Below, piece after piece: positions 1-18,841 of a stretch of DNA of 21,030 nucleotides (the first letter of the stretch is position 1; each line of letters begins with the position of its first letter). The position numbers were made by a program, and so were the translations under genes. The DNA comes from a virus: the IMG/VR virus record IMGVR_UViG_3300043430_000015, positions 1-21,030 of that record, one strand, 5' to 3'. The notes beneath the pieces are model-generated. The model made no database searches and had not been told where the DNA came from. It saw only the letters and a program-made list of their open reading frames with translations.

Positions 1-3000
1 CAGGCCCACAGCATTGAAGTTGTGGGCAGCCATACGATAAGTGCCCGGTGCTTGAGTTGCTTGAGTGGTTTCCGACTCACCAACGATCACCGATACCCGA
101 GCCATGAATATACTCAGGGCGGTTTCCATGGCAGGCCCACGGACACCGAACACGATGGTGGAGATGGCACGGAAGAATTGCTGAGCCTTGTTCTTCAGGG
201 CAGCAAAACCTTTTTCCACCATAGGCACAGCAGCCATGGCTTTCTGGAAAGCAGGGTTGGTCATCCCCCATGCCACGAACTCTTGCAAGGTACTGACTGC
301 TTCGCTGTGCTCAGCTTCCAGTAGAGGCTTCAGCTCTTTACGTAGGGCTTCCAGATCAGCCACAGCAGCCAGTACTTCAGCACTACCATGACCTTTCTCA
401 GCTTGGTCAATGATCCAGGCCACCATGGCGTGCAGAATTTCATGCACGACCAGCTCAGTAGTCACCCCAGACCCACCCATGGAAGTGCCACGAATACCCA
501 AATGAGCTTTGCCATCAGCATCAACGTGATACCAACCATAGGCATCCTTGGCTTTCTCAGGAATCTGGGAATCCGAGGTGGCATAGACAATCGGTAGACC
601 TTGGAGCTGCTTGATGCCGCGCTTCAGGATTTCCCGGTACAGCTTACCCATGGTGTCACCGTCTTGAGGTGTACCAATGCTGTTGAACAGCTTGGCCGCT
701 ACTTCATTGGCGGTGATCCCCTCGGTTTGCAGCAGGGCATCCAGGTCGAAGTCAGTTACCTGAGTACTACGGGTTTTCTTAGCAGCAGTTTTTGCTGCTA
801 CGGGAACCTTCTTGGCAAAGACGATCTCGTCCAACTGGGCAGCAATTGCCAACAAAGCCGGGTCGATTTTCGGAGACAGAGCATCCCGTTTCTTGGCAGC
901 CAGATTGTTGAAGCTGTTGGGTACATCGAAGATACCAGCAGCGATGGTGTATTGATCCACCACAGCCAATTGGCTCAGACCATCCAAACGGTTGTAGTCC
1001 GCTTCATGGGCAAAACGGGCTGCACGCTGAACCAGAATCGTAAATGACACGGGGTCTTTACGGTCTTCTTTCTGGGAGTTGAGCAGTTCCCCTAGAGCTT
1101 CCTTACTGATGTCACCCGGATTCTGTTCGATGTAGGCCGCGAAGCCCTTCAGAGTACGCTCCAGCGATTCGTAACTTTCACGGGGCAGCGAGTGATTCAG
1201 CAGCATATCCATCACTTGCTGGTTCATGGCTTGGCCGGCAGCAGCCGCATCATGCAGAGCACTGAGTACAGCGTCATGCACCCCCATCAGATTCAAGGCA
1301 GCCAGTACTTCCACGATGGTGTTGCCATCGAGAGACTGCACACTGTTGGCCATAATGGATACGCCTGGGTTCGACTCCACACGCATTACAGGTTTGGATT
1401 TGTGGTTGGTTTTTTCACCGTTGACCACCCCTTTCACATCCGTGGTGTGGGTAGGGCTGTTAGAGGCTTTGCGGGCCGACTTGGACACGTAGATGCCAGC
1501 ATCCAATTGACCATCTCGCTTGGACAGAGCCGTGTTGATGCGCGGTTCCATGTCCTTGATAGCTTCCAGGGCCGGAGCTTTTTCAGCTGGAGTCAGTTCA
1601 CGCAGCGGTTGGCGTACTTTCTTTTTCTCGAATACCGGACGACCTTTTTTGTCTTTGCCGATCACTTTATCGGTATCAACAGTGATCCACTGGAAATCAA
1701 TTTCACCCCAGTCCATCAGCTGTTCAGTGAGGTCATCAAGAAGTTTGGTACGAACCATGTCGTACATAGTCCAGACACCGTTAGCCTGACGCACCATCTG
1801 CTTACGGGCGTCCATGTAGCCCTTAAAGTCTTCATTGATGGTGTCTTTAACAGCTTTGCCTATCGACTCTTTGAACTCTTCACGGAGATTACTCAGTGCT
1901 GCGGCTTCCATAGGTGTTTCCATAGCCTGTTCCAGTTCACCCGGGAACAGGTATTGAGACATCCCTGACATCTCCTTCAGGTCTTCTTGGTACTGTGCCC
2001 ACGCAGCAACACCAGTGAGTTTCTGAGCACCGTAGGCTTTACCTTCAGCGATCTGACCCATGGTCTTGTAGACGTTCTCGATGAACACATCGGTCATCTT
2101 TTCCACGGTGGTTTCCAGACCAGAACCGTAGATGAGGGTGGTCAATGGATTTTTGACCAGATCACGCCCAGCCTTAGAGATGCTGTTGTCTTCGTTCAAC
2201 GGCGAACCAAGAAGATTGAACAGGGCGTCCAGCGACTTCTGTTCAAAGCCGCGACTCAACAGACGCCCAATCAGACTCGAAGCAGTGCGTTCATACAGGT
2301 CGTAGTTACCCGGCTTCCATTGACCGAAGCTGCGCACTTGACTCACATGCGTGTAGAAGCCACCCATGGCGGCGAAGGTACTGTCCATCACACCCAGCAG
2401 CCACATACTCAGCATTGGGCCGTTGGTCTTACCATCCACTTCAGAAGTCACAATGGCTTTGAAGCTGGATTCCCCTGCTGCTTTAGCGTTCTCATACTGA
2501 GCCAGAGCAACCAATGCCTCGAAGCCGTGCAGCTTTGTCTTGGACTTCAAGACTGCATTGGCAATGGTTGCCTGTGCTTCTTTCGACAGCTTCTGCTGTT
2601 CAACAGGCAGAGCTACTACCGGGCGTAGGGCTGCTACAGCATCAACAATGTGTTTTGCTGTATCCAAGTCGTTGGTCATCTTGTCCCAGTTGGCCAGCGA
2701 TACATCATCCGACTGACTGTCGGTTTTGGCACCCAAAGCCTCCATCACACGCAGCTTGAAATTATCCAAGCTGGTTTGATTCTTGTTCGGGGCAGAGCCA
2801 TCAATCACCACCTCAGACTCCCAACCCACAGGGGATACGAGGAAACGTGCGATCTTACTGGTCTGCATGTTGGCCCATGAACCGGTGTAGCCGATACGGC
2901 TATTCTTCCACTGGTCAGGCAGGGAGAAGAAGTTACGGAATGGGGTGCCCAGGGCACTCAGGTGCATCCACAGGTCTTGCAGCTGTTCCAGTTCACGACG

Positions 3001-6000
3001 CAGGTTATCGTTCGCAGCCTGAGCAGACTCACGCAGCTCTGCGTGCATTACCAGTTTCTCGACATTCTCGATACCGGCAATGTCTTCAAGGAAGCCTTGT
3101 TCAGCACTAATCAGCATGGTCATGGCAGGACGGAACGACATCTGCCGACTGGCAAACTTAGACATTGCCCGCTTAACCGACTTGGAGACTTTCTGAAGAC
3201 CACCATTGGTGTCTTCTTGAGTCACTTTTGGTGGCTCAAGCAGGGGCATCTGTTGGGCACTTTCCATACCGAACAGGGTAGCCAGTACACCACCGGTACC
3301 TTTGGACACACTCTTGATGCGTTCCAGGGGTTCGATCAGCTTCTTACCATCACGAGGTACTGACACGAAGATGTCAGTACGGAACTTGTTGATGGTGTCA
3401 TCGCCAGCAGCCCCTTCATCTTCAGAGGCGTCTTCTTCATTGACAGAATCAGCTGGCTTGCCTGCATAGGTACCAATGTCTACTTCATTCAGTTGAAGGA
3501 GATTCAGCTCTACTAGCATGTTCAAGGCATGGGCACCCAGATGGGCACGTAGACGCTCCAACTCACCAACAGGGGTGTTTTCGTCTTTGATCTTGATGCC
3601 CAACGAATCAGTAATGAACTGCCCGAGTTTGTTCTCGATAGCAAAACGACGGGCCAGCATAGGGCGCAGTCGGTTACGCACATCACGTCCAACGTCAGTC
3701 TCTTTAGGGAGACCCAACATCATGGCGATTTCTTCGTTGGTACGGTACATCGGGGTATTTACTTCTTCTGCCAGCAGAGCAAAGGCACCAGCAGCCATAG
3801 CAGTCAGGAAGTTTGCATCGAACTTGCCGTCTTCATTACGGAAGAACTCCACGGGTTCACGGAAATACCAGTCCTTGTTAGGCAGCCCTTTCTTGTTCAG
3901 CGAAGGGGGAATCACCTTGTTGATGGTTTCCACGAACTTGTCATGGGCTTGAATGAACAGGGCCACCAATGGGGCTTGAGCTTCGGTCATACCATGGCTC
4001 AGGAACTCATCCATGAGGATGTCTCCCACTTTTACATGGGCCATGAAATTCGACACTGCCACCAACGGACGTGGGGTAGTGGAATGCAGGGATTGAGCCA
4101 CCTGTTTGAAGTAGGCAGATAGCAGATTCTTTTCACGGAAAAGATTAGCAGTAATGCGATCTACCACAGCTTCTTTGAACGCAGTCAACACACCTGCGGT
4201 TTGACCCAGGTAATCAGACTTGCGGGCCTCCGTCTTCGCTACACGGCCATCTACCCATGATTGAGTACGGCGGGCTGCCTCAGCTGCGTCTGCTTCTTCA
4301 GTTTGCTTTTGTTCAGCCGCTTTCAGGTCTGCTTCTGCCTTACTGACTTCTTCCTCGAAGTCGGCATCTTGGCTTGCCGGTGTCTCTTTCTGCTCCAGTG
4401 CCCCAATTTCTGGTGAGCTGTCAGACGTGGCATTCAGTTGGGGGGTGGATTCTTTATCGTTAAGCGGGGTCAGCAGTTCATCGGTAAGGTTCAAGGCTTC
4501 AATCAGTACGCTATTCGGTACGGCTTGGGAACCCAACACCTCGTTCAACAAACGCAGCAGTGTGTCTGCCAGTTCACGTAGTACGGAAGTGCCATTCTTT
4601 ACGGGGATGCGAGAAAAGACCACTTGTGCGCGTTTGTCCGTCAGCGCATAGGTCAAGAACTCATGCCGGGATTCCAACGAATTGTTTATCCGTTCCCGTA
4701 CATTAGCAGGCAAGGCTTTGCCCGCTTTGGTTTTCATCCAGTTGCGTACCTGCTGTTGCAGATGATCAACCTGAGCCTGAAGCTCTTTATTGGTTTCCAG
4801 CAGGTCATAGGTGAGGGCATGCACCATCTCATGGATCAGGGTGTCTACCACTTTAGAAGCTTTCAGCTGACGCCCTGCTGCCTGATGACGCAGGGCAGAT
4901 TCAGCGATGTTGATCTGAATAATTCGAGATTTCGGGTGATATAGGCCAGCTTCGGGGCGTTTGCTGTTCTTCTCAGGGGTGAAGAGTTGTACATCCGTAA
5001 TGGCCTGAATAATGGGATTACCCAGCAGACGCTCAAACAAGGCTACTGTAGACGCACGACCATTAGCACGCACCCAGTCTGTCAAATCTTTGGGTACCAC
5101 AGCATTTATAGAGTCCAACCGAGATGTCAGGTCTTGTAAGGCATCCACCTCTTTAGACTCTTCGGATACCGATTCAGCCTTCGGAGCACTTACCGGCTGT
5201 GCCGATGTTTCTTCATCCGACAGCTGAGTAACATCCTTCGGGGTTTGTACCGGGAGAGGCTTTGGTACTTTCTTCGTGGCAGAGGAGGCTTGAGCACGTA
5301 CAGGGCGAGCAATCTTCATAGCAGCAGACATTTCAGCTGCCGAGGCTTCTAGTGCTTTGACTTCCATTTCTACTGCGTTGAGCAGGTTGCCGGAGTTCCG
5401 TGCAGAGATGTTTACCCCACCCTTTTTACGCACGGCATCCCAGCTCATACCTTTCGGTGCAACAACCCATTTACCGGTGTTGTTGCCCACTGGCAGGAAC
5501 GAATAGGTCTTGGTACCGCCGGCTTTTTCGCTGGCATCAAAGGCACGAGAGAACAGGTTGAATTTGGCACGATGACCTTCAGTGAACCGGGTCAATTCAC
5601 TCAGAGCACGAGTAGCCTGTTCGGTGTTACCTGTTTTGTGCGCAGTATCGAAGTCCTTCTGGTAGTCGTTCAGGCCAAAGTTGCCATTACCCCCGGAGAA
5701 TACCTCCTTGCTTACACCTTCAACATCCTTCAAGGCATTGATAGCACGGCGGGCATCAGCAGCTCGGGTCAGGAAAGAGCGTTGTTCAGTACTCAACACA
5801 TTGGAAGTGTTGGAAGCCAAGGCTTCCAGCTGCTCAGGCGTAACTTTGCTGGAGCGATTCATGGCTAGAGTCATCACTTTGCTGGTGGACTCAGTGGCTT
5901 TTGCTACAACGGTTTCATCGGCTTCGGTGATGTCGGTATCTGCCTCGGCCACAGCTGCGTCGATGTCTTCTACAGTGGTCAGGCCACTGAGTTCATCACG

Positions 6001-7896
6001 CCAGCTTTTTACAGCTAGCTTCATGCTGGCAACCTGTTCCCGGGTTGCTTCAAAGTCCTGAACCAGTGCCTCTCGATCAGTCTCAGTGGCATCTTCAGGG
6101 AGGGCTTTGACTGCTTCTTCTTTGACAGTCAGTTGCTGTTCCATTACACCAACCAGACCTTCCCCGTACTGCACGTAATCTTCTGGATCAACGTCGTCTT
6201 CAGTGGTCTTGGTGTAGTGGTGCATGGCTGTGATAGCAGCCGTAGGGTTGAAGGTGTCGGCATTGAAGTCGATCAGCTTATCCACATCACCTGTGGTCTT
6301 GGCCTCTTCAAAAGCCGCTACCTTGGCTGCATCAGCATCCACAACACCTTTAGCCTTGTCTTTAAGGGAATCGGCCTGATTACCTAGGGCAGTTAATGCA
6401 CCACCAGAAACAATATCCCCGGTCTGTACCAGCGTTTCGATACCACCTTTCAATCCACCACCCACGATCCCACCAATACCTGCTGCCTTGGCAATGGTGT
6501 TGAAATCGAAATCAGTGTTCAGCTTGGAGAGGTTTTCTTCCACTGCAGTCTGATACCCCTCAGTTGGGGCTTCAGAAATAACACCGGAAGCTACTGCAGC
6601 AGGTACACGCCCAAGTTCTTTGGCAGCTGTTACCAGTTTCCCTGCTTTCACTTGGGTGAACGCATCCCCCATTACCTTACTGAGTGGCCCTTTTAAGGGA
6701 CTCAATGTCAGCATGTCGCCAACCTGTTCAGCAGCTGCGGCTGACAAACTCCAGCCAAGCATTTCAGTGGCTTCAGCTTGAGTAGGCAGCTTGCCTTCAT
6801 TCTTGGCTTGATATTCTTCCAACCCTTTACGGTAGATGTCTGCACCGTAGGCAAGGTTGGTTTGAGCCATCATCAACTGACCGGTTTTGCCTGCAGCACC
6901 CAAGGCCAGTTGGGGTACGTTCTCTGCAATGTATTCCAGTGCAGCGTCTGGGTTATCCAGTGCATTGGCACCAAAATCTTTAACCAGACCGGCAATGCCT
7001 TTACCCGTTTCGAGTAGGGCAGAACCAGTATCACCCTTATCCCATGCAGCACTTGCTGCGGTGAATGAAGCCTTATTGGCTTCCACCGAAGCATTCATAT
7101 CGGCGTTGAGGACATCACGTTTGAGCGGGTTTATCACCCCTTCAGTGATACCTTCGATGGATTTATCGACAGTGCCAGCGAACTTCAAAGCGTTTTTTGC
7201 CGCCTCGATACGTTCACGAGGAGAGAGTTCTTGTTCAATCAGACCCGCATCTTGATAGTCAGACGGGGCGAAGGCCAAAGCACCAGTAGGGTTCTGGGCA
7301 ACATTACGTTGCTCAGGCCGTACATCTAGTGCCTTTAGCTTTTCTGTATCGGGGGCTACCAGAGCTTTCTGCTGGTTACGTAATTCCAAACGACGTGCAG
7401 CAGCCTCAATTGGCCCCAGTTTCCCCGACATTACATCGAATTGTAGGGCTGTTTCAGCCGATTTCAGCCCCTCAACTTGAGACTTGTAGCCCTGTTCAAC
7501 ATCATACAAGGCCCGCATTTCATCACTGACACCACTCAGTTGTGCGTCAGCAAATGCAGTGGCCGGGGCACTTGCTACATCGCCAACAAGACGGGCACCA
7601 CCTGTCGCTATGGAAGCCCCTTCCTGTGTTCGACTGCCCCAAAACGTGTGCAGGTCATCGTCGCTTACAATTGCTTGTTCATTACGAGCATCTGCTGCGA
7701 GCTTTTCCTGCTCCAACAAGAATACAGCCCGATCATGATTTTTCCATGGATCAGGAACTGTGGCCCCACCCGACATCCCAGAACGCTCTGCAAGAAGTAT
7801 TTTTTTGGCAGCAGATTTAGCTTCCAACTTGTCTAACTTTTGCTCAGTACGATCAATAGGTGCATTGATACCAGGGAGTGTCGGTAAAAGGGCCAT
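1..7896 (-). CDS. Virion RNA polymerase (N4 gp50-like), giant, C-terminus beyond window
   Basis: The frame is open for 2632 codons from ATG at 7896 to the window edge. The start follows GAGG by 7 nt, 14 nt after the upstream gene. Single-subunit RNA polymerase motifs appear in order: SRIGY (R1667, matching T7 R425); motif A DGKTNG (D1821, matching D537); motif B R1911-xxx-K1915 ending Y1923-G1924 (T7 R627, K631, Y639); VQSLDG near 2186-2191 (T7 VHSQDG); motif C HDA (D2208, matching D812). The D1821-R1911 spacing equals T7's 90 residues. N4 vRNAP has about 3500 residues with its core at 998-2103; scaling puts this core near 1244-2363 (inference). Two HExxH zincin-like regions flank it (984-1084 and 2454-2546). 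The N-terminal region has alternating hydrophobic and charged helices and a glycine-rich stretch (473-485). Expected role: packaged in the capsid, injected with the DNA, and transcribing early genes. About 1000 further residues may lie outside the window. Confidence 0.93.
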   Translation of the reverse strand, partial: MALLPTLPGINAPIDRTEQKLDKLEAKSAAKKILLAERSGMSGGATVPDPWKNHDRAVFLLEQEKLAADARNEQAIVSDDDLHTFWGSRTQEGASIATGGARLVGDVASAPATAFADAQLSGVSDEMRALYDVEQGYKSQVEGLKSAETALQFDVMSGKLGPIEAAARRLELRNQQKALVAPDTEKLKALDVRPEQRNVAQNPTGALAFAPSDYQDAGLIEQELSPRERIEAAKNALKFAGTVDKSIEGITEGVINPLKRDVLNADMNASVEANKASFTAASAAWDKGDTGSALLETGKGIAGLVKDFGANALDNPDAALEYIAENVPQLALGAAGKTGQLMMAQTNLAYGADIYRKGLEEYQAKNEGKLPTQAEATEMLGWSLSAAAAEQVGDMLTLSPLKGPLSKVMGDAFTQVKAGKLVTAAKELGRVPAAVASGVISEAPTEGYQTAVEENLSKLNTDFDFNTIAKAAGIGGIVGGGLKGGIETLVQTGDIVSGGALTALGNQADSLKDKAKGVVDADAAKVAAFEEAKTTGDVDKLIDFNADTFNPTAAITAMHHYTKTTEDDVDPEDYVQYGEGLVGVMEQQLTVKEEAVKALPEDATETDREALVQDFEATREQVASMKLAVKSWRDELSGLTTVEDIDAAVAEADTDITEADETVVAKATESTSKVMTLAMNRSSKVTPEQLEALASNTSNVLSTEQRSFLTRAADARRAINALKDVEGVSKEVFSGGNGNFGLNDYQKDFDTAHKTGNTEQATRALSELTRFTEGHRAKFNLFSRAFDASEKAGGTKTYSFLPVGNNTGKWVVAPKGMSWDAVRKKGGVNISARNSGNLLNAVEMEVKALEASAAEMSAAMKIARPVRAQASSATKKVPKPLPVQTPKDVTQLSDEETSAQPVSAPKAESVSEESKEVDALQDLTSRLDSINAVVPKDLTDWVRANGRASTVALFERLLGNPIIQAITDVQLFTPEKNSKRPEAGLYHPKSRIIQINIAESALRHQAAGRQLKASKVVDTLIHEMVHALTYDLLETNKELQAQVDHLQQQVRNWMKTKAGKALPANVRERINNSLESRHEFLTYALTDKRAQVVFSRIPVKNGTSVLRELADTLLRLLNEVLGSQAVPNSVLIEALNLTDELLTPLNDKESTPQLNATSDSSPEIGALEQKETPASQDADFEEEVSKAEADLKAAEQKQTEEADAAEAARRTQSWVDGRVAKTEARKSDYLGQTAGVLTAFKEAVVDRITANLFREKNLLSAYFKQVAQSLHSTTPRPLVAVSNFMAHVKVGDILMDEFLSHGMTEAQAPLVALFIQAHDKFVETINKVIPPSLNKKGLPNKDWYFREPVEFFRNEDGKFDANFLTAMAAGAFALLAEEVNTPMYRTNEEIAMMLGLPKETDVGRDVRNRLRPMLARRFAIENKLGQFITDSLGIKIKDENTPVGELERLRAHLGAHALNMLVELNLLQLNEVDIGTYAGKPADSVNEEDASEDEGAAGDDTINKFRTDIFVSVPRDGKKLIEPLERIKSVSKGTGGVLATLFGMESAQQMPLLEPPKVTQEDTNGGLQKVSKSVKRAMSKFASRQMSFRPAMTMLISAEQGFLEDIAGIENVEKLVMHAELRESAQAANDNLRRELEQLQDLWMHLSALGTPFRNFFSLPDQWKNSRIGYTGSWANMQTSKIARFLVSPVGWESEVVIDGSAPNKNQTSLDNFKLRVMEALGAKTDSQSDDVSLANWDKMTNDLDTAKHIVDAVAALRPVVALPVEQQKLSKEAQATIANAVLKSKTKLHGFEALVALAQYENAKAAGESSFKAIVTSEVDGKTNGPMLSMWLLGVMDSTFAAMGGFYTHVSQVRSFGQWKPGNYDLYERTASSLIGRLLSRGFEQKSLDALFNLLGSPLNEDNSISKAGRDLVKNPLTTLIYGSGLETTVEKMTDVFIENVYKTMGQIAEGKAYGAQKLTGVAAWAQYQEDLKEMSGMSQYLFPGELEQAMETPMEAAALSNLREEFKESIGKAVKDTINEDFKGYMDARKQMVRQANGVWTMYDMVRTKLLDDLTEQLMDWGEIDFQWITVDTDKVIGKDKKGRPVFEKKKVRQPLRELTPAEKAPALEAIKDMEPRINTALSKRDGQLDAGIYVSKSARKASNSPTHTTDVKGVVNGEKTNHKSKPVMRVESNPGVSIMANSVQSLDGNTIVEVLAALNLMGVHDAVLSALHDAAAAGQAMNQQVMDMLLNHSLPRESYESLERTLKGFAAYIEQNPGDISKEALGELLNSQKEDRKDPVSFTILVQRAARFAHEADYNRLDGLSQLAVVDQYTIAAGIFDVPNSFNNLAAKKRDALSPKIDPALLAIAAQLDEIVFAKKVPVAAKTAAKKTRSTQVTDFDLDALLQTEGITANEVAAKLFNSIGTPQDGDTMGKLYREILKRGIKQLQGLPIVYATSDSQIPEKAKDAYGWYHVDADGKAHLGIRGTSMGGSGVTTELVVHEILHAMVAWIIDQAEKGHGSAEVLAAVADLEALRKELKPLLEAEHSEAVSTLQEFVAWGMTNPAFQKAMAAVPMVEKGFAALKNKAQQFFRAISTIVFGVRGPAMETALSIFMARVSVIVGESETTQATQAPGTYRMAAHNFNAVGL
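259..537 (-). other. Second zincin-like metallopeptidase domain of the vRNAP
   Basis: Residues about 2454-2546 of the giant protein lie just C-terminal to the predicted polymerase core. The pattern is GWYH at 2454-2457, a strand ending LGI, then VVHEILHAM with H2485, E2486 and H2489 as the zinc and catalytic residues. LQEFVAWGMTNP follows, with E2539 as candidate third ligand 50 residues after H2489. This is the layout of phage zincin-like domains (gluzincin type). The substrate is unknown. Confidence 0.72.
1237..2904 (-). other. Polymerase palm/fingers motifs within the vRNAP
   Basis: This is the part of the giant protein (residues about 1665-2220) holding the catalytic motifs. D1821 and D2208 are the predicted metal-binding aspartates, K1915 and Y1923 the fingers residues that contact the incoming nucleotide, and R1667 the DxxGR-type arginine. 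After motif C the second aspartate D2216 lies 8 residues on, as D820 does after D812 in T7. The A-to-C spacing of 387 residues is closer to N4 (392) than to T7 (275), which fits the N4 branch of the family. All key residues are present, so the enzyme should be active. Confidence 0.9.
4645..4947 (-). other. First zincin-like metallopeptidase domain of the vRNAP
   Basis: Residues about 984-1084 of the giant protein lie N-terminal to the polymerase core. The pattern is GLYHPKSRIIQINI from residue 984, then LIHEMVHALTYDLLE with H1022, E1023 and H1026, a helical stretch, and HEFLTYALTD with E1079 as candidate third ligand 53 residues after H1026. Order and spacing mirror the second domain (GWYH, HEILH, EFVAW), which suggests duplication or two related modules. 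Confidence 0.72.
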
Positions 7897-7910: not shown

Positions 7911-9218
7911 TCATTTCAGATTCTTCAAGATATTACCCTGAATCATCTGCAATTGCTTCTCCATCCGTTTGGTTGCTGCTTTTGAGGATGCTGTATCAAC
8001 TTGTTTACGCAACTCGGTGTATGCAACGTAATCACTGAGAGCATTGGTCATTTTGGATTGAAACCCATTAAAGTCCATGGTGTCATCACCAAAAAGGGCC
8101 TCATCTACACCAGAACTTTTCAGTGCTTGTTCTACTACTGGACCAAGGTTAGTGATACCTGCAGCTTCCAAAGAGCCTTTATGTTTTTCTTTGAAAGTTT
8201 TCAGGTGAGTCTTGATCAGGTTGGAGGTTTCATCCTCTTCACCTTTAACCCGAGGAAAGATACTAGCAATGGCTTCGTCTTCAGTGACCTTAGTAGCTTT
8301 AGGGTCACTGTAACGATTCTTTGTGAGCTGTTCCTTTGCCAGCTCAGCAGATTTGGTCATAGCTATCAGCTCACTATCTGATGATAACAGTGCATCCTGC
8401 TCTGCAGTCAGGCCAGTGCGAGTTTGATAGGACTTCTGCAAGGCTTCTAAACCAGCATTGACCACATCATCACGAAGACCCTTTTCTTTGGCAGAAGTAA
8501 GGTAGGCTGAGCGCGCACTAGCGAAGTCAGCGGCACCATTCAGGGCCTGATCACCAAGGTCAATGGCCACACGACGTTGGGTAGTTTCAGCCCACTGATC
8601 CTCCCAATCCTTAGTTTCACGTTGATCACGCGCAATATCCAAACCCAGTTGACGCTGAGAGATGGCCAACTGGCTTTTAGTGTTGTCTTGGTTGAACTGA
8701 ACATCACCACGTTCTAATAGACGATTTGTGAAGGGGGACTCATCAGTGCCCAGTACCCGAGAGGCTTTCCAGTCAGCTGCTTCTTTCAGCTTACCTGCGG
8801 CCACGAGGTCATCAAACACTGCTGCATCCGGACGTGCATCACGGTTGATCTTGTCGTCACCGTACTGGTTCTGCGCAGCAATACGCTTCATCAGCACATC
8901 TGCTTGGGCAGCTTCTGCACCACGCACAGCATCACGGTCGATCTGACCACCGAACTGAGCCTTCAATGCTTGAAGCTGGCCAGCCTCTTGAGCAGCCGCC
9001 AACTCTTCAGGCGTCTTGTACTGAGCCAGACGATCAAGGAACTGGTCAGTGTTGACCTCTTTTTGAGTGTCCCAGTTCTGCTGGTTCACCTCATTACGAG
9101 AGTCGATGATTCCATTGAAGCCGGTGAAACCATCGTTCAGGGCACGGCGAGCCGACTCGAAGAGCACAGCAGCTCCACGAGTCGGATCACTTTCCACGTT
9201 ACGCCAAGTGATAGGCAT
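7911..9218 (-). CDS. Internal virion protein, 435 aa (N4 gp51-like by position)
   Basis: The protein starts MPITWRNV at ATG 9218, 3 nt after the stop of the preceding gene, with a G-rich ribosome-binding site (GTGGGGGG) about 8 nt upstream. It is mostly helical, rich in Ala, Glu, Lys and Gln, with no signal peptide or membrane segment, and no cysteine was noticed. The section around residues 45-130 has long amphipathic helices (QFLDRLAQYKTPEELAAAQE and following). There is no recognisable enzymatic motif. It sits directly before the virion polymerase gene, where N4 gp51 lies, so an internal or ejected structural role is inferred from context. It could instead act as a chaperone for packaging the polymerase. 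The gene is certain; the function is not. Confidence 0.85.
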   Translation of the reverse strand: MPITWRNVESDPTRGAAVLFESARRALNDGFTGFNGIIDSRNEVNQQNWDTQKEVNTDQFLDRLAQYKTPEELAAAQEAGQLQALKAQFGGQIDRDAVRGAEAAQADVLMKRIAAQNQYGDDKINRDARPDAAVFDDLVAAGKLKEAADWKASRVLGTDESPFTNRLLERGDVQFNQDNTKSQLAISQRQLGLDIARDQRETKDWEDQWAETTQRRVAIDLGDQALNGAADFASARSAYLTSAKEKGLRDDVVNAGLEALQKSYQTRTGLTAEQDALLSSDSELIAMTKSAELAKEQLTKNRYSDPKATKVTEDEAIASIFPRVKGEEDETSNLIKTHLKTFKEKHKGSLEAAGITNLGPVVEQALKSSGVDEALFGDDTMDFNGFQSKMTNALSDYVAYTELRKQVDTASSKAATKRMEKQLQMIQGNILKNLK

Positions 9219-9221
9219 GGG

Positions 9222-9680
9222 TTATACCCCCCACTTCTTCATGTATTCCGCTTCAGACTGATAAGCAGTTGGGTTGGACGCCACACGCGCAAGCTGTCGA
9301 TCAGACAACTGAGAGTTGATGTTTTTACGCTGTGCCTGATAGTTAATGTCGAACTGACGCTTCTGTTCCTTCAAGGCATCCTCAGCCAGCCCGAACTGCT
9401 TCATACCCATGTAGCTATTGCCCAGCCCCTGCAGACCTTGCATGGCCATACCACCCCAACCTTGGGTTTTGATCCCATTGGCGTCGGTCTTGTCTAGGAA
9501 GCCATCGAACAGACCACCAAACAACGAACCACCCTGAGTAGCTGGAAGGGTGTTAATAGGGGTACTACCACTGTTGTAGCTACCCCAATTATTCATCTTC
9601 ATCAGTTCTGGGTTTTGGGCCATGCCATTGGCACTGCCGCCCCCCAACCATGCAGGCAAGTTATTCATCCATTCCATCAT
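9222..9680 (-). CDS. Small internal virion protein, 152 aa (N4 gp52-like by position)
   Basis: The start chosen is ATG 9680 (MMEWMNNLPAWLGGG), preceded by GGAG at a spacing of 6 nt. The frame is open back to 9752, but that start has no such site and would overlap the upstream gene by 92 nt. With the chosen start the gene overlaps the end of the 753-residue gene by 20 nt, which suggests coupled translation. The N-terminal half is rich in Gly, Asn, Met and Ser. The C-terminal third is a charged helix (LKEQKRQFDINYQAQRKN) followed by NSQLSDRQLARVASNP and a YQSEAEYMKKWG tail, an arrangement I associate with small core proteins of N4-like and related podoviruses. Predicted role: minor internal component ejected with, or needed to load, the polymerase. 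Confidence 0.85.
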   Translation of the reverse strand: MMEWMNNLPAWLGGGSANGMAQNPELMKMNNWGSYNSGSTPINTLPATQGGSLFGGLFDGFLDKTDANGIKTQGWGGMAMQGLQGLGNSYMGMKQFGLAEDALKEQKRQFDINYQAQRKNINSQLSDRQLARVASNPTAYQSEAEYMKKWGV

Positions 9681-11922
9681 TCGTTTCTCCAAAGGTGTCG
9701 GATAATTTAGGTAGAGTAAGTGATATTTGGGTATAAGACGAAATTGCGTCAAACCCTAGTGTGCCCATATTGCCGGCATGAACAGATCGGTTGTAGAAAT
9801 CCTGAGGAGCCTCCCCTGGAGTGAATGTAGGCTCCCTGCCAATAAAAGCGAATGGGTCCAGAATATCCCCCATACCCATCAACTTCTGGGCATCTTCAAG
9901 GGCTGTCTGAGCTTCAGTAGCCATTAGCTTGAACTCAGCAAACTCACTGCTATAAGCAGAAGAGATACCTGCCTGATACCCAGCACTGGATGCGTCCATC
10001 AAACCGGTGGACATAGACATCAGTGAGTCTGCCCAAGTGGCTTCAGCAAAGTTGCCATACACCCCAACAGCCAGACCTACCAGGGCAACAAACATAGCGA
10101 ACTCTGGACCTGCCAACTTCACAAACAGCTTGAAGGTCAGTTGCAGTACCAGAGCTTGAACTACATAGGTCACTACAGCCCAAGCAATCGCTGCAGCAGT
10201 CATTGCTTCTAATGTTGCCCACAGCCCAGGTCCAGCAGACCCCCCCGAAAACACTGTGACCACGACGGCGATAGCAATCAGTACCCATTTGAACCAGGAC
10301 TGCTGATACCACTTGGTCGTTTCCACGATCATCGAGTTGAATACGAAGTGCAGCGACCGTAGGTATAGCTCCTCCTTCATACCCAATGCCATCGTGTCAG
10401 TGATGGCTTTATCTATTGGAATCAACAGGTTAGCTGAGCCTGTCTTAGCTACCGTGTTGTACTTGCCCTCCACGTTGTAAATCATGGTCAAGTCGTAGAC
10501 CCGGATTTCTTCATAGAAGGTTTCAGTGGTCTGACGTTGGTAGGAGTAGTACGGATTGGATACCGTCCGGAACTGCTTGGAACCAGTGGTGTAATCAGCG
10601 TACCGCAGGGTGGATGTTTCAGTGCCCTGCTCACTCTTACAGGTGCCCACAGCACCAATGCTACCGGCCACCCGACGACGACCAATCCCGTTGTATCGAA
10701 GGGTACACTTGAAGTCCAAGTCAGCAATTGAGATGGCCATGCCATCACGACGCACGATGCCTGCACTGTCTGAGTACACCGGTCCAAGCATGGTTTCAGG
10801 CTCTGGGCTGGCGTAATACATGGTGCTGAAGTAGTCGAAGAGGTAACGACTTTCTACCTGAGACTTACCCTCTGCAGGCACAGCCATCATCATGATGGCC
10901 TGTACGATGTCATCAATACCCTCGTTTGCATGGATGTCGTTGGCCAGGCTTTGGTAGTCCAGGCCCAGGTACTTGAGCATCTTGGTCGAAGTTACATAGG
11001 CAGGAGAGTACTCGTGCTCTGCACCAGTCATGTTCTTGCTTTGGCTTCGGAAGAACGTGAAAGGGAAGTAGCTACCCACCTTTTCGTATTCAACGTCATG
11101 GATGGCATCAACCTGCGAATGCAGGCCAGAACCATCAAGATAGGTCCAGTGCCCAACACGCATCACCCCACCTTTGAGATAACGGTACTGGACTTGGTAA
11201 TACTCAAGTTCCTGGTCATACGGAACCATGGATACAGGGAACGACTTGAATACCTGCTCACCTGAAGCAGTTTGGTAGGTGTAATGCACCTCAACAGAGT
11301 CCACTGAAGCGTTGGGATCAACGAAGTAATCCCCCGCCTTCACGTAGGTCCGGAGACTGAATACTTCCTGCCCCTCACGGTGATTGGCATACCGTGCCAA
11401 AGCAGGTTCACCCCACACATCGAATGCACCTGGTTCAGCTTCGTCAAAGGTGCTCTGTGCGTAGATCACAACAATGTCGTTGAGGTAGACCTTGGCACCT
11501 ACTTGAGCTGACAGGACCGGAATCTCATTGGTCCGGTAGTCGTATTCGTAGTCATCTGACAGCTTTTTCCAAGCTGTGTGGGTGTTGTTGATTGGTGCGT
11601 ACTTGAAGTAGTCGATCTCGATGTTCTGGCCAAGCTCCATCTCAATGGCCTGCTTAACCACATCTTCACCATTCGTCTTCATGTGAAACGAATGGTTGGG
11701 TAGACCATGGGTGTAGTGGTCGCGGGCATACGCAAACATACGATCTGCTTTAACGGCAGCACACCCTAGAAAACCTGTAACCAAAGAGTCGGCAATGGAA
11801 CCTTCCTCCAGACACGCAGTAATCACACTGGTCTTACTGGTGTAGGGCAGCATGTTGTCATTGACCAAGCGTGTCACCGTGGTGTCTACGGTCACTTTTT
11901 TCTTTGAGCTGAATAGCCCCAT
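9661..11922 (-). CDS. Large virion protein with C-terminal membrane-like segments, 753 aa (N4 gp53-like by position)
   Basis: The protein starts MGLFSSKKKV at ATG 11922, with AGGGG upstream, just after a terminator. Residues 1 to about 540 look globular, with many aromatic beta-type segments (for example YYQVQYRYLKGGVMRVGHW). Residues about 543-625 form a hydrophobic cluster of roughly three helices: WVLIAIAVVVTVF, then MTAAAIAWAVVTYVVQALVLQ, then FAMFVALVGLAVGVYG. An Ala/Ser/Glu-rich helical tail follows. There is no signal peptide. In a phage virion such a cluster suggests a protein that enters or crosses the host membrane during DNA ejection; this is inference. By order it corresponds to N4 gene 53. 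A tape-measure or channel role is possible. The last 20 nt overlap the next gene. Confidence 0.88.
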   Translation of the reverse strand: MGLFSSKKKVTVDTTVTRLVNDNMLPYTSKTSVITACLEEGSIADSLVTGFLGCAAVKADRMFAYARDHYTHGLPNHSFHMKTNGEDVVKQAIEMELGQNIEIDYFKYAPINNTHTAWKKLSDDYEYDYRTNEIPVLSAQVGAKVYLNDIVVIYAQSTFDEAEPGAFDVWGEPALARYANHREGQEVFSLRTYVKAGDYFVDPNASVDSVEVHYTYQTASGEQVFKSFPVSMVPYDQELEYYQVQYRYLKGGVMRVGHWTYLDGSGLHSQVDAIHDVEYEKVGSYFPFTFFRSQSKNMTGAEHEYSPAYVTSTKMLKYLGLDYQSLANDIHANEGIDDIVQAIMMMAVPAEGKSQVESRYLFDYFSTMYYASPEPETMLGPVYSDSAGIVRRDGMAISIADLDFKCTLRYNGIGRRRVAGSIGAVGTCKSEQGTETSTLRYADYTTGSKQFRTVSNPYYSYQRQTTETFYEEIRVYDLTMIYNVEGKYNTVAKTGSANLLIPIDKAITDTMALGMKEELYLRSLHFVFNSMIVETTKWYQQSWFKWVLIAIAVVVTVFSGGSAGPGLWATLEAMTAAAIAWAVVTYVVQALVLQLTFKLFVKLAGPEFAMFVALVGLAVGVYGNFAEATWADSLMSMSTGLMDASSAGYQAGISSAYSSEFAEFKLMATEAQTALEDAQKLMGMGDILDPFAFIGREPTFTPGEAPQDFYNRSVHAGNMGTLGFDAISSYTQISLTLPKLSDTFGETNDGMDE

Positions 11923-18409: not shown

Positions 18410-18841
18410 TTGAACATCAAACAACTCCATCAAAACTTCAAAATACCCACTCGTGGTACTGATTACGCAGGCGGCTACGACATCTACATGCCCGAGAAAG
18501 GGACGATGATGCCGGGAGCTACCTATGGTCAGATGGTTCCACTGGGCTTTTCAGCTGAAGTGCCGGTGGGTTATGTAGCCCTACTGCTACCTCGTTCTGG
18601 TGCAGGGGCCAAGCACGGAGTATCCCTGAACAACACGGTTGGTGTCATTGATGCTGACTACCGTGGTGAGTGGATGGCTTGCTTGCGTGTGAAGAACGGC
18701 CTACCACATCGTTGGGAAGCAGGTGACCGCCTACTGCAGTTCATTCTGGTTCCCGTCAATACGCCTGAGCTGGTTCTTGTTAAAGAACTGAGCAGCACTG
18801 AGCGTGGTGAAGGTGGATTTGGAAGCACGAACCAGAAGTGA
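18410..18841 (+). CDS. dut: Deoxyuridine 5'-triphosphate nucleotidohydrolase (trimeric dUTPase), 143 aa
   Basis: It hydrolyses dUTP to dUMP and pyrophosphate, keeping uracil out of phage DNA and feeding dTMP synthesis. All five motifs of the homotrimeric family are present: motif 1 TDYAGGYDI (17-25); motif 2 PRSGAGAKHG (61-70); motif 3 NTVGVIDADYRGEW (75-88, with catalytic-site D81 and Y84); motif 4 GDRLLQFILVPV (105-116); and the C-terminal P-loop-like motif 5 RGEGGFGST (132-140). Length is typical. Translation starts at TTG, a rare choice, supported by AGGAG at 9 nt. It is the only plus-strand gene in the window, lying between the portal and the gp67-like gene. Two hairpins and a terminator follow it, so it forms its own transcription unit. 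It was probably inserted as a metabolic cassette. The product should be active. Confidence 0.97.
   Translation: MNIKQLHQNFKIPTRGTDYAGGYDIYMPEKGTMMPGATYGQMVPLGFSAEVPVGYVALLLPRSGAGAKHGVSLNNTVGVIDADYRGEWMACLRVKNGLPHRWEAGDRLLQFILVPVNTPELVLVKELSSTERGEGGFGSTNQK

What the first reader, a model, noticed from the sequence alone, without database searches (positions are those of the whole stretch)
259..4947. Virion RNA polymerase flanked by two putative metalloprotease domains
Seen: in one frame, a zincin pattern (G984LYH, H1022EMVH, E1079 in EFLTY) precedes, and a second (G2454WYH, H2485EILH, E2539 in EFVAW) follows, the T7/N4-type polymerase motifs at 1667-2208. Spacings are similar (GxYH to HExxH 38 and 31 residues; second His to Glu 53 and 50). 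Known: N4 vRNAP is injected into the cell and its flanking domains have no clear assigned enzymatic function that I know of. Inference: the flanks are peptidase modules that could free the polymerase after entry, cut partner ejection proteins, or attack a host protein. A three-enzyme injected protein would be a distinct infection-start machine.
Basis: partly seen in the sequence, partly recalled or inferred. Interest (0 to 1): 0.88.

Follow-up and report, generated by a model that had tools for sequence, protein, structure and literature searches.

The report
Phage polymerase carrying two protease domains
This N4-like phage packs a giant RNA polymerase that carries the zinc-protease domain known from nearly all its relatives plus an unusual second one on the other side of the polymerase; relatives show that this protease can move across the polymerase but was never lost outright in our survey, so it probably does an important job at the start of infection.

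Summary
Confirmed: the minus-strand vRNAP gene of an N4-like phage (Schitoviridae) has two zincin domains flanking the polymerase, at exactly the residues given. Zincin-2 is not new. It is the "C1" domain of coliphage N4 vRNAP, recognised as a zincin in 2017 (PMC5512222) and solved by cryo-EM in 2025 (PMC12633501). Iyer et al. also proposed self-processing or host cleavage. Zincin-1 is an extra module in the NTD-polymerase linker, absent from 19 reference vRNAPs and from the closest relative (54% identical). It is homologous to C1; H, E, H and distal Glu are invariant in a 45-sequence alignment, and AlphaFold2 gives a zincin-like topology. Survey: of 133 non-redundant vRNAPs with complete N-termini, 125 have only C-side zincins, 6 have both (window included), and 2 unrelated lineages have only an N-side zincin with C1 cleanly deleted. 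None has zero. Zincins of several families entered the same linker. The module is therefore retained but movable, and it also sits in ejection proteins without polymerase, which favours a protease acting in trans after ejection over simple self-release. A degenerate zincin-like repeat follows C1 family-wide. Substrate unknown; no activity shown. New variant of a known kind.

The parts
1..7896 (-). virion RNA polymerase (vRNAP, N4 gp50-like) gene, first 2632 codons; truncated by the window edge (3750 aa in L021)
   Evidence: (phrog_2206 E 1.3e-235)
5197..7896 (-). N-terminal domain (residues 1 to about 900), ejection/membrane domain by homology to N4
   Evidence: alignment; function from PMC12633501
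4441..5103 (-). zincin-1 (residues 932-1152), extra metallopeptidase domain inserted in the linker between NTD and polymerase
4819..4833 (-). HEMVH, residues 1022-1026 (zinc ligands and general base)
   Evidence: invariant
4660..4662 (-). E1079, distal glutamate zinc ligand of zincin-1 (EFLTY)
   Evidence: invariant
997..4143 (-). T7/N4-type RNA polymerase domain (about residues 1252-2300); D1821 (motif A), R1911/K1915 (motif B), D2208 (motif C)
   Evidence: (PF21894)
1..663 (-). zincin-2 (residues from 2412), the C1 zincin domain of the N4 family; its last part runs off the window
430..444 (-). HEILH, residues 2485-2489
   Evidence: invariant
280..282 (-). E2539, distal glutamate zinc ligand of zincin-2 (EFVAW)
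   Evidence: invariant
7911..9218 (-). gene directly upstream of vRNAP, in the position of N4 gp51 (ejection protein); phrog_6467
   Evidence: position as in LIT1/N4
9222..9752 (-). N4 gp52-position protein (second ejection protein); phrog_2646; listed ORF overlaps the next gene

Best explanation
The gene makes a Schitoviridae virion RNA polymerase with two intact zincin (HExxH + distal Glu) metallopeptidase domains. Zincin-2 is the family's conserved C1 domain. Zincin-1 is a homologous domain in the flexible linker between the membrane/ejection NTD and the polymerase; it was most simply present in the common ancestor of this phage and L038 and later lost in L023. Proposed function: the zincin is a cargo protease delivered with the polymerase. 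After ejection and refolding at the inner membrane it cuts a substrate in trans, either a host protein or a co-ejected channel protein; because it acts in trans, its position in the chain is free to change. Shown computationally: domain identity, intact catalytic residues, movable position, presence in ejection proteins without a vRNAP polymerase. Inferred: proteolytic activity, timing and substrate class. Not known: the substrate. (Confidence in the anatomy alone is about 0.95; the figure below is for the mechanism.)
For: Catalysis is under selection: all 166 C-side zincin matches (E<1e-10) keep HExxH (the profile was seeded with HExxH copies), and the general-base Glu, which is not a zinc ligand, is invariant. 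All 10 N-side zincins keep HExxH plus a Glu-helix motif 42-79 residues on. Position is exchangeable: L038 and L103 lost C1 cleanly and both carry an N-side zincin; 2 of 8 N-side carriers lack C1 against 0 of 125 others, Fisher p=0.003. Reciprocal best match of window and L038 N-zincins (79 bits), while window C1 matches L023 C1 (280 bits), in a clade with support 1.0. The same domain is in internal virion/ejection proteins other than vRNAPs: PDB 9sfn (E 5e-26), PhiM1 tetrameric ejection protein 8vb2 (E 3e-13), 23sg gp10, and Xanthomonas/Pseudomonas internal virion proteins.
Against: No protease assay or cleaved substrate is known from the sources read. Movement of the domain also fits self-processing, because linkers lie on both sides of the polymerase and about 4 copies enter together. 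The C1-loss statistic rests on two cases and was noticed after the fact. The zincin might have different substrates in different phages.
Confidence: 0.45

Rival explanations
1. Self-processing after entry: the zincins cut the two inter-domain linkers, releasing the polymerase from the membrane-bound NTD and from the autoinhibitory C-terminal domain.
For: Zincin-1 sits in the NTD-polymerase linker and zincin-2 just after the polymerase-CTD linker; the N4 CTD inhibits transcription and the linkers are flexible; proposed by Iyer et al. 2017.
Against: Purified full-length N4 vRNAP showed no degradation although C1 is intact; the N4 transcription machinery is reported as membrane-associated during infection (reference cited); the zincin also occurs in ejection proteins other than vRNAPs.
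Confidence: 0.27
2. Virion maturation or packaging: the protease works inside the head, for example trimming internal proteins before release.
For: The C-terminal region is required for encapsidation of N4 vRNAP, and a zincin-bearing phage P1 protein (DdrB) is processed before packaging (cited in PMC5512222).
Against: N4 vRNAP is packaged unprocessed; L038 and L103 lack C1 altogether, so C1 itself is presumably not needed for packaging.
Confidence: 0.12
3. Non-proteolytic role: C1 is kept as a zinc-stabilised clasp that holds the CTD on the polymerase.
For: In N4 a C1-polymerase salt bridge stabilises the tight complex; a second, degenerate zincin-like repeat follows C1, so non-catalytic use of the fold has precedent.
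Against: Invariance of the general-base Glu is not explained by a clasp; the N-side zincins of L038 and L103 are of different families and could hardly make the same contact, yet coincide with C1 loss.
Confidence: 0.09
4. The second zincin has no separate job: it is a redundant copy that persists until one copy is lost (compatible with any function above; its confidence is not exclusive of theirs).
For: Within one supported clade there are all three states: both (window), C1 only (L023), N only (L038).
Against: Both copies in the window keep every catalytic residue; zincin-1 and its L038 orthologue have only 26% identity and are still intact.
Confidence: 0.3

Closest known systems
Coliphage N4 vRNAP gp50 (PDB 9pnr, 9pnt, 11gp; PMC12633501)
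   Same: NTD - polymerase - C1 zincin - C2 layout, catalytic motifs, neighbouring ejection-protein genes; C1 HELVH at 2228
   Different: N4 has a ~100-residue low-complexity linker where the window has zincin-1; about 17-20% identity overall
Polyvalent-protein zincin-like MPTase domains (Iyer et al. 2017, PMC5512222)
   Same: HExxH plus distal Glu in a second helix, three strands flanked by helices; [quoted passage not shown]
   Different: The paper's text as read does not describe zincins on both sides of the polymerase, loss of C1, or the degenerate repeat; its supplementary architecture files could not be checked
L023 (IMGVR 3300016478_000127)
   Same: Closest relative, 54% identity over the whole protein (59% in the best segment), same C1
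   Different: No N-side zincin
L038 (IMGVR 3300018411_000030)
   Same: Orthologous N-side zincin (HEVVH 1119, reciprocal best match)
   Different: C1 zincin deleted; short acidic linker in its place
PhiM1 tetrameric ejection protein gp48 (8vb2) and internal virion protein 9sfn
   Same: Same zincin domain by profile (E 3e-13 and 5e-26)
   Different: Ejection/internal virion proteins of 1,263 and 1,337 aa, not vRNAPs
Selecase / minigluzincins
   Same: Top Foldseek matches of the zincin-1 model (prob up to 0.89, E 0.09)
   Different: Free-standing small enzymes; TM-scores low (0.25 by query)

Membership tests
Schitoviridae virion RNA polymerase (phrog_2206) | Homology over polymerase and C-terminal regions | tested here: met
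   phrog_2206 E 1.3e-235 over 1154-2615; N4_RNAP_helical above cut-off
Schitoviridae virion RNA polymerase (phrog_2206) | Catalytic residues of motifs A, B, C | tested here: met
   D1821, R1911, K1915, D2208 invariant in 19 sequences
Schitoviridae virion RNA polymerase (phrog_2206) | Gene order gp53-gp52-gp51-gp50 in the late operon | tested here: met
   searches compared with 13, 14, 31
Schitoviridae virion RNA polymerase (phrog_2206) | Packaged in the virion and ejected | not testable with these tools
   inferred from homology only
Polyvalent-protein zincin (gluzincin-like) MPTase | HExxH and distal Glu conserved | tested here: met
   invariant in both domains
Polyvalent-protein zincin (gluzincin-like) MPTase | Three-stranded sheet with N-terminal helix, HExxH helix and Glu helix | tested here: met
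   AF2 zincin-1: strands 39-43, 55-58, 63-67; helices 84-106 and 148-157 (pLDDT 83.9, pTM 0.80). Zincin-2 likewise. Coordinates not available to measure ligand geometry
Polyvalent-protein zincin (gluzincin-like) MPTase | Zinc binding and proteolysis | not testable with these tools
   needs experiment
SprT-like (PF10263) | Curated Pfam cut-off 25.6 bits | tested here: inconclusive
   26.6 bits in P0001, 25.5 in the full protein, 20.1 for the isolated domain
SprT-like (PF10263) | Third zinc ligand is a His shortly after HExxH (my knowledge of Spartan) | tested here: not met
   no His between H1026 and residue 1042; the invariant ligand candidate is E1079
Minigluzincin/selecase | Fold match at confident level | tested here: inconclusive
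   best matches, but E 0.09 at best

The most novel reading that the evidence does not exclude
The zincin is an obligatory but position-independent protease of the Schitoviridae infection-start machine: it can be moved from one side of the polymerase to the other, replaced by an unrelated zincin, or doubled, but not lost; and the C-terminal domain of these polymerases contains a second, catalytically dead zincin-derived repeat that has not been recognised in the solved N4 structure.
Probability: 0.4. Interest if true: 0.68.

Novelty: new variant of a known kind. Interest (0 to 1): 0.55.

Why it matters
N4 vRNAP has been studied for 50 years as a polymerase. That its attached protease stays catalytically intact family-wide, and that deletion of it is accompanied by a zincin on the other side of the polymerase, says that an ejected proteolytic activity matters at the start of infection in a widespread podovirus family. 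It turns an open question (what does the zincin do?) into a one-residue experiment in N4, which has a solved structure. The window phage, with both copies, and L038, with the swapped copy, are natural domain-swap experiments. The dead zincin-like repeat would give the first homology for part of the N4 C2 domain, described as lacking structural homologues.

Tried and rejected
Chance motif: rejected. Zincin-1 as a general Schitoviridae feature: rejected; none of 19 references nor L023 has it. Zincin-1 as a recent copy of the window's own C1: rejected; its best match is the L038 N-zincin, not its own C1. Recent foreign insert: GC and GC3 of zincin-1 resemble the rest of the gene. Membership of SprT-like: not accepted (third ligand). 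Plasmid relatives: none. Close relatives of zincin-1 alone: phages only weak matches in Xanthomonas internal virion proteins; viral contigs only the same phage. Genome collection: only two N4-like contigs, in Larsenimonas and Vreelandella assemblies, each with a single C1-type HExxH. HExxH matches without zincin context (D505 1537, L096 1005, L043 955) are treated as chance, although L043 remains as 'two C-side' (5'-partial group) in the regex tally. A possible zincin-1 remnant in the L023 linker is too weak to use. First PDB search with the whole protein gave only coiled-coil noise. Foldseek gave no hit at E<0.001 for either model.
Full report
WHAT IS THERE. The window is a 21 kb fragment of an N4-like phage (virus record G000), late operon on the minus strand: terminase large subunit, portal, major head protein, gp53-, gp52- and gp51-position genes, then the giant virion RNA polymerase. 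The vRNAP gene runs from the ATG at 7896 to the window edge. A contig 99.93% identical over 13,661 bases completes it at 3,750 aa (L021/L022).

OBSERVATION. Two HExxH in such a protein occur in 0.2% of shuffles. Homology evidence is much stronger than the motif: Pfam SprT-like on zincin-1; PHROG's vRNAP profile matching zincin-1 at its own C1 positions; zincin-1 against zincin-2 E 5e-8; a profile from three N-side zincins finding C1 domains of other vRNAPs (best 2.9e-22). In 45 domains drawn from N-side zincins, C1 domains and unrelated phage proteins only H, E, H and the distal Glu are invariant. AlphaFold2 models (zincin-1 pLDDT 83.9, pTM 0.80; zincin-2 plus downstream 82.0, pTM 0.65) show helix, three strands, HExxH helix, Glu helix, the topology given for this group in PMC5512222. 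Foldseek is only suggestive: selecase minigluzincins for zincin-1, N4 vRNAP for zincin-2 (prob 0.99, E 2e-3).

WHAT IS KNOWN. Iyer et al. [quoted passage not shown] The 2025 N4 structure preprint defines C1 (2124-2375) with a conserved HExxH, shows that the C-terminal domain inhibits transcription, that the NTD inserts in membranes, that NTD and polymerase are joined by a ~100-residue linker, and reports no degradation of purified protein. So zincin-2 and the functional guesses are prior art.

WHAT IS NEW HERE. (1) Zincin-1 occupies the NTD-polymerase linker and is missing from 19 reference vRNAPs and from the closest relative L023 (whole-protein identity 54%).

(2) Survey of IMG/VR vRNAPs (160 non-redundant with polymerase and C2, 133 with complete N-terminus): 125 have only C-side HExxH, 6 have N-side and C1, 2 (L038, L103) have N-side only. 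In both, the polymerase end leads through a short linker straight into C2. The two lie in different clades; on the tree N-side presence needs 8 changes and C1 loss 2.

(3) Window and L038 N-zincins are reciprocal best matches (79 bits), whereas window C1 pairs with L023 C1 (280 bits). With window+L023 and then L038 forming supported clades (1.0), the simplest history is an ancestor with both, loss of the N copy in L023 and of C1 in L038. Two separate gains of related zincins at the same place are not excluded.

(4) Other N-side zincins fall into different groups (L093; L103/L121; L237/L241/L281; L160/L096) with weak Pfam links to M48, M90 and M60, yet all sit N-terminal to the polymerase and all keep HExxH plus a Glu-helix motif. 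Several are recognised by context rather than by significant profile hits, so their zincin identity is likely, not proven.

(5) About 110-150 residues after C1 the zincin profile matches again without HExxH (E down to 8e-7). Profile-profile comparison gives 95.7% probability (E 1e-8), against about 1% or less for five other vRNAP segments; the NTD-side segment, which includes the N-side zincins of a few sequences, gives 29%. C1 reads ETLVHELVHAAT where the repeat reads QEAFVFEQVEAT. The model shows a similar helix order but no strands there, so this is a degenerate zincin-derived repeat at best, in N4 about 2440-2613, inside the C2 domain described as lacking homologues. It lies outside the window.

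MECHANISM. Selection keeps catalysis: no C-side zincin match lacks HExxH (0 of 166; the profile was seeded with HExxH copies, so this is not fully independent), and the general base, not a zinc ligand, is invariant. Both vRNAPs without C1 carry an N-side zincin (Fisher p=0.003, post hoc, two cases). So some zincin appears to be required, but neither its place nor its family matters much. The same domain is in ejection/internal virion proteins that are not vRNAPs and in crAss-like phage proteins. Common to them is ejection or virion location, not the vRNAP polymerase. I therefore rate trans cleavage of a host or co-ejected protein after entry as most likely (0.45), self-processing of linkers second (0.27), with redundancy of the second copy an overlapping possibility. 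Catalytic activity, timing and substrate are inferred, not shown.

VERDICT. A real, correctly read feature; half of it is already in the literature, the other half is a new variant with informative relatives. Scores: interest 0.55, new variant of a known kind.

Noticed in passing
L021:13990-14330 (residues about 2740-2855); N4 gp50 about 2440-2613: Degenerate zincin-like repeat (no HExxH) directly after the C1 zincin in most Schitoviridae vRNAPs; profile-profile E 1e-8 against about 1% probability for control segments.
   Followed up: partly
window 18410-18841 (+): A dUTPase-like gene (phrog_135, E 4e-51) on the plus strand between portal and another virion gene, inside the minus-strand late operon.
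   Followed up: no
L165 and L166 (vRNAPs of 4753 and 4989 aa); L235 (4459 aa): Unusually large vRNAPs; L165/L166 carry an extra HEYAH motif between polymerase and C1.
   Followed up: no
L152 residues 1942 and 2177: Two tandem HExxH zincin matches on the C-side of the polymerase.
   Followed up: no
L008 (PQ898399.1, Enterobacter phage SonariX, 248,734 b): A 249 kb 'partial genome' record carries a cbunavirus-like vRNAP and neighbours at one end; possibly a mixed assembly.
   Followed up: no
L171: vRNAP-matching ORFs are split into several pieces; frameshift, insertion or assembly error not resolved.
   Followed up: no
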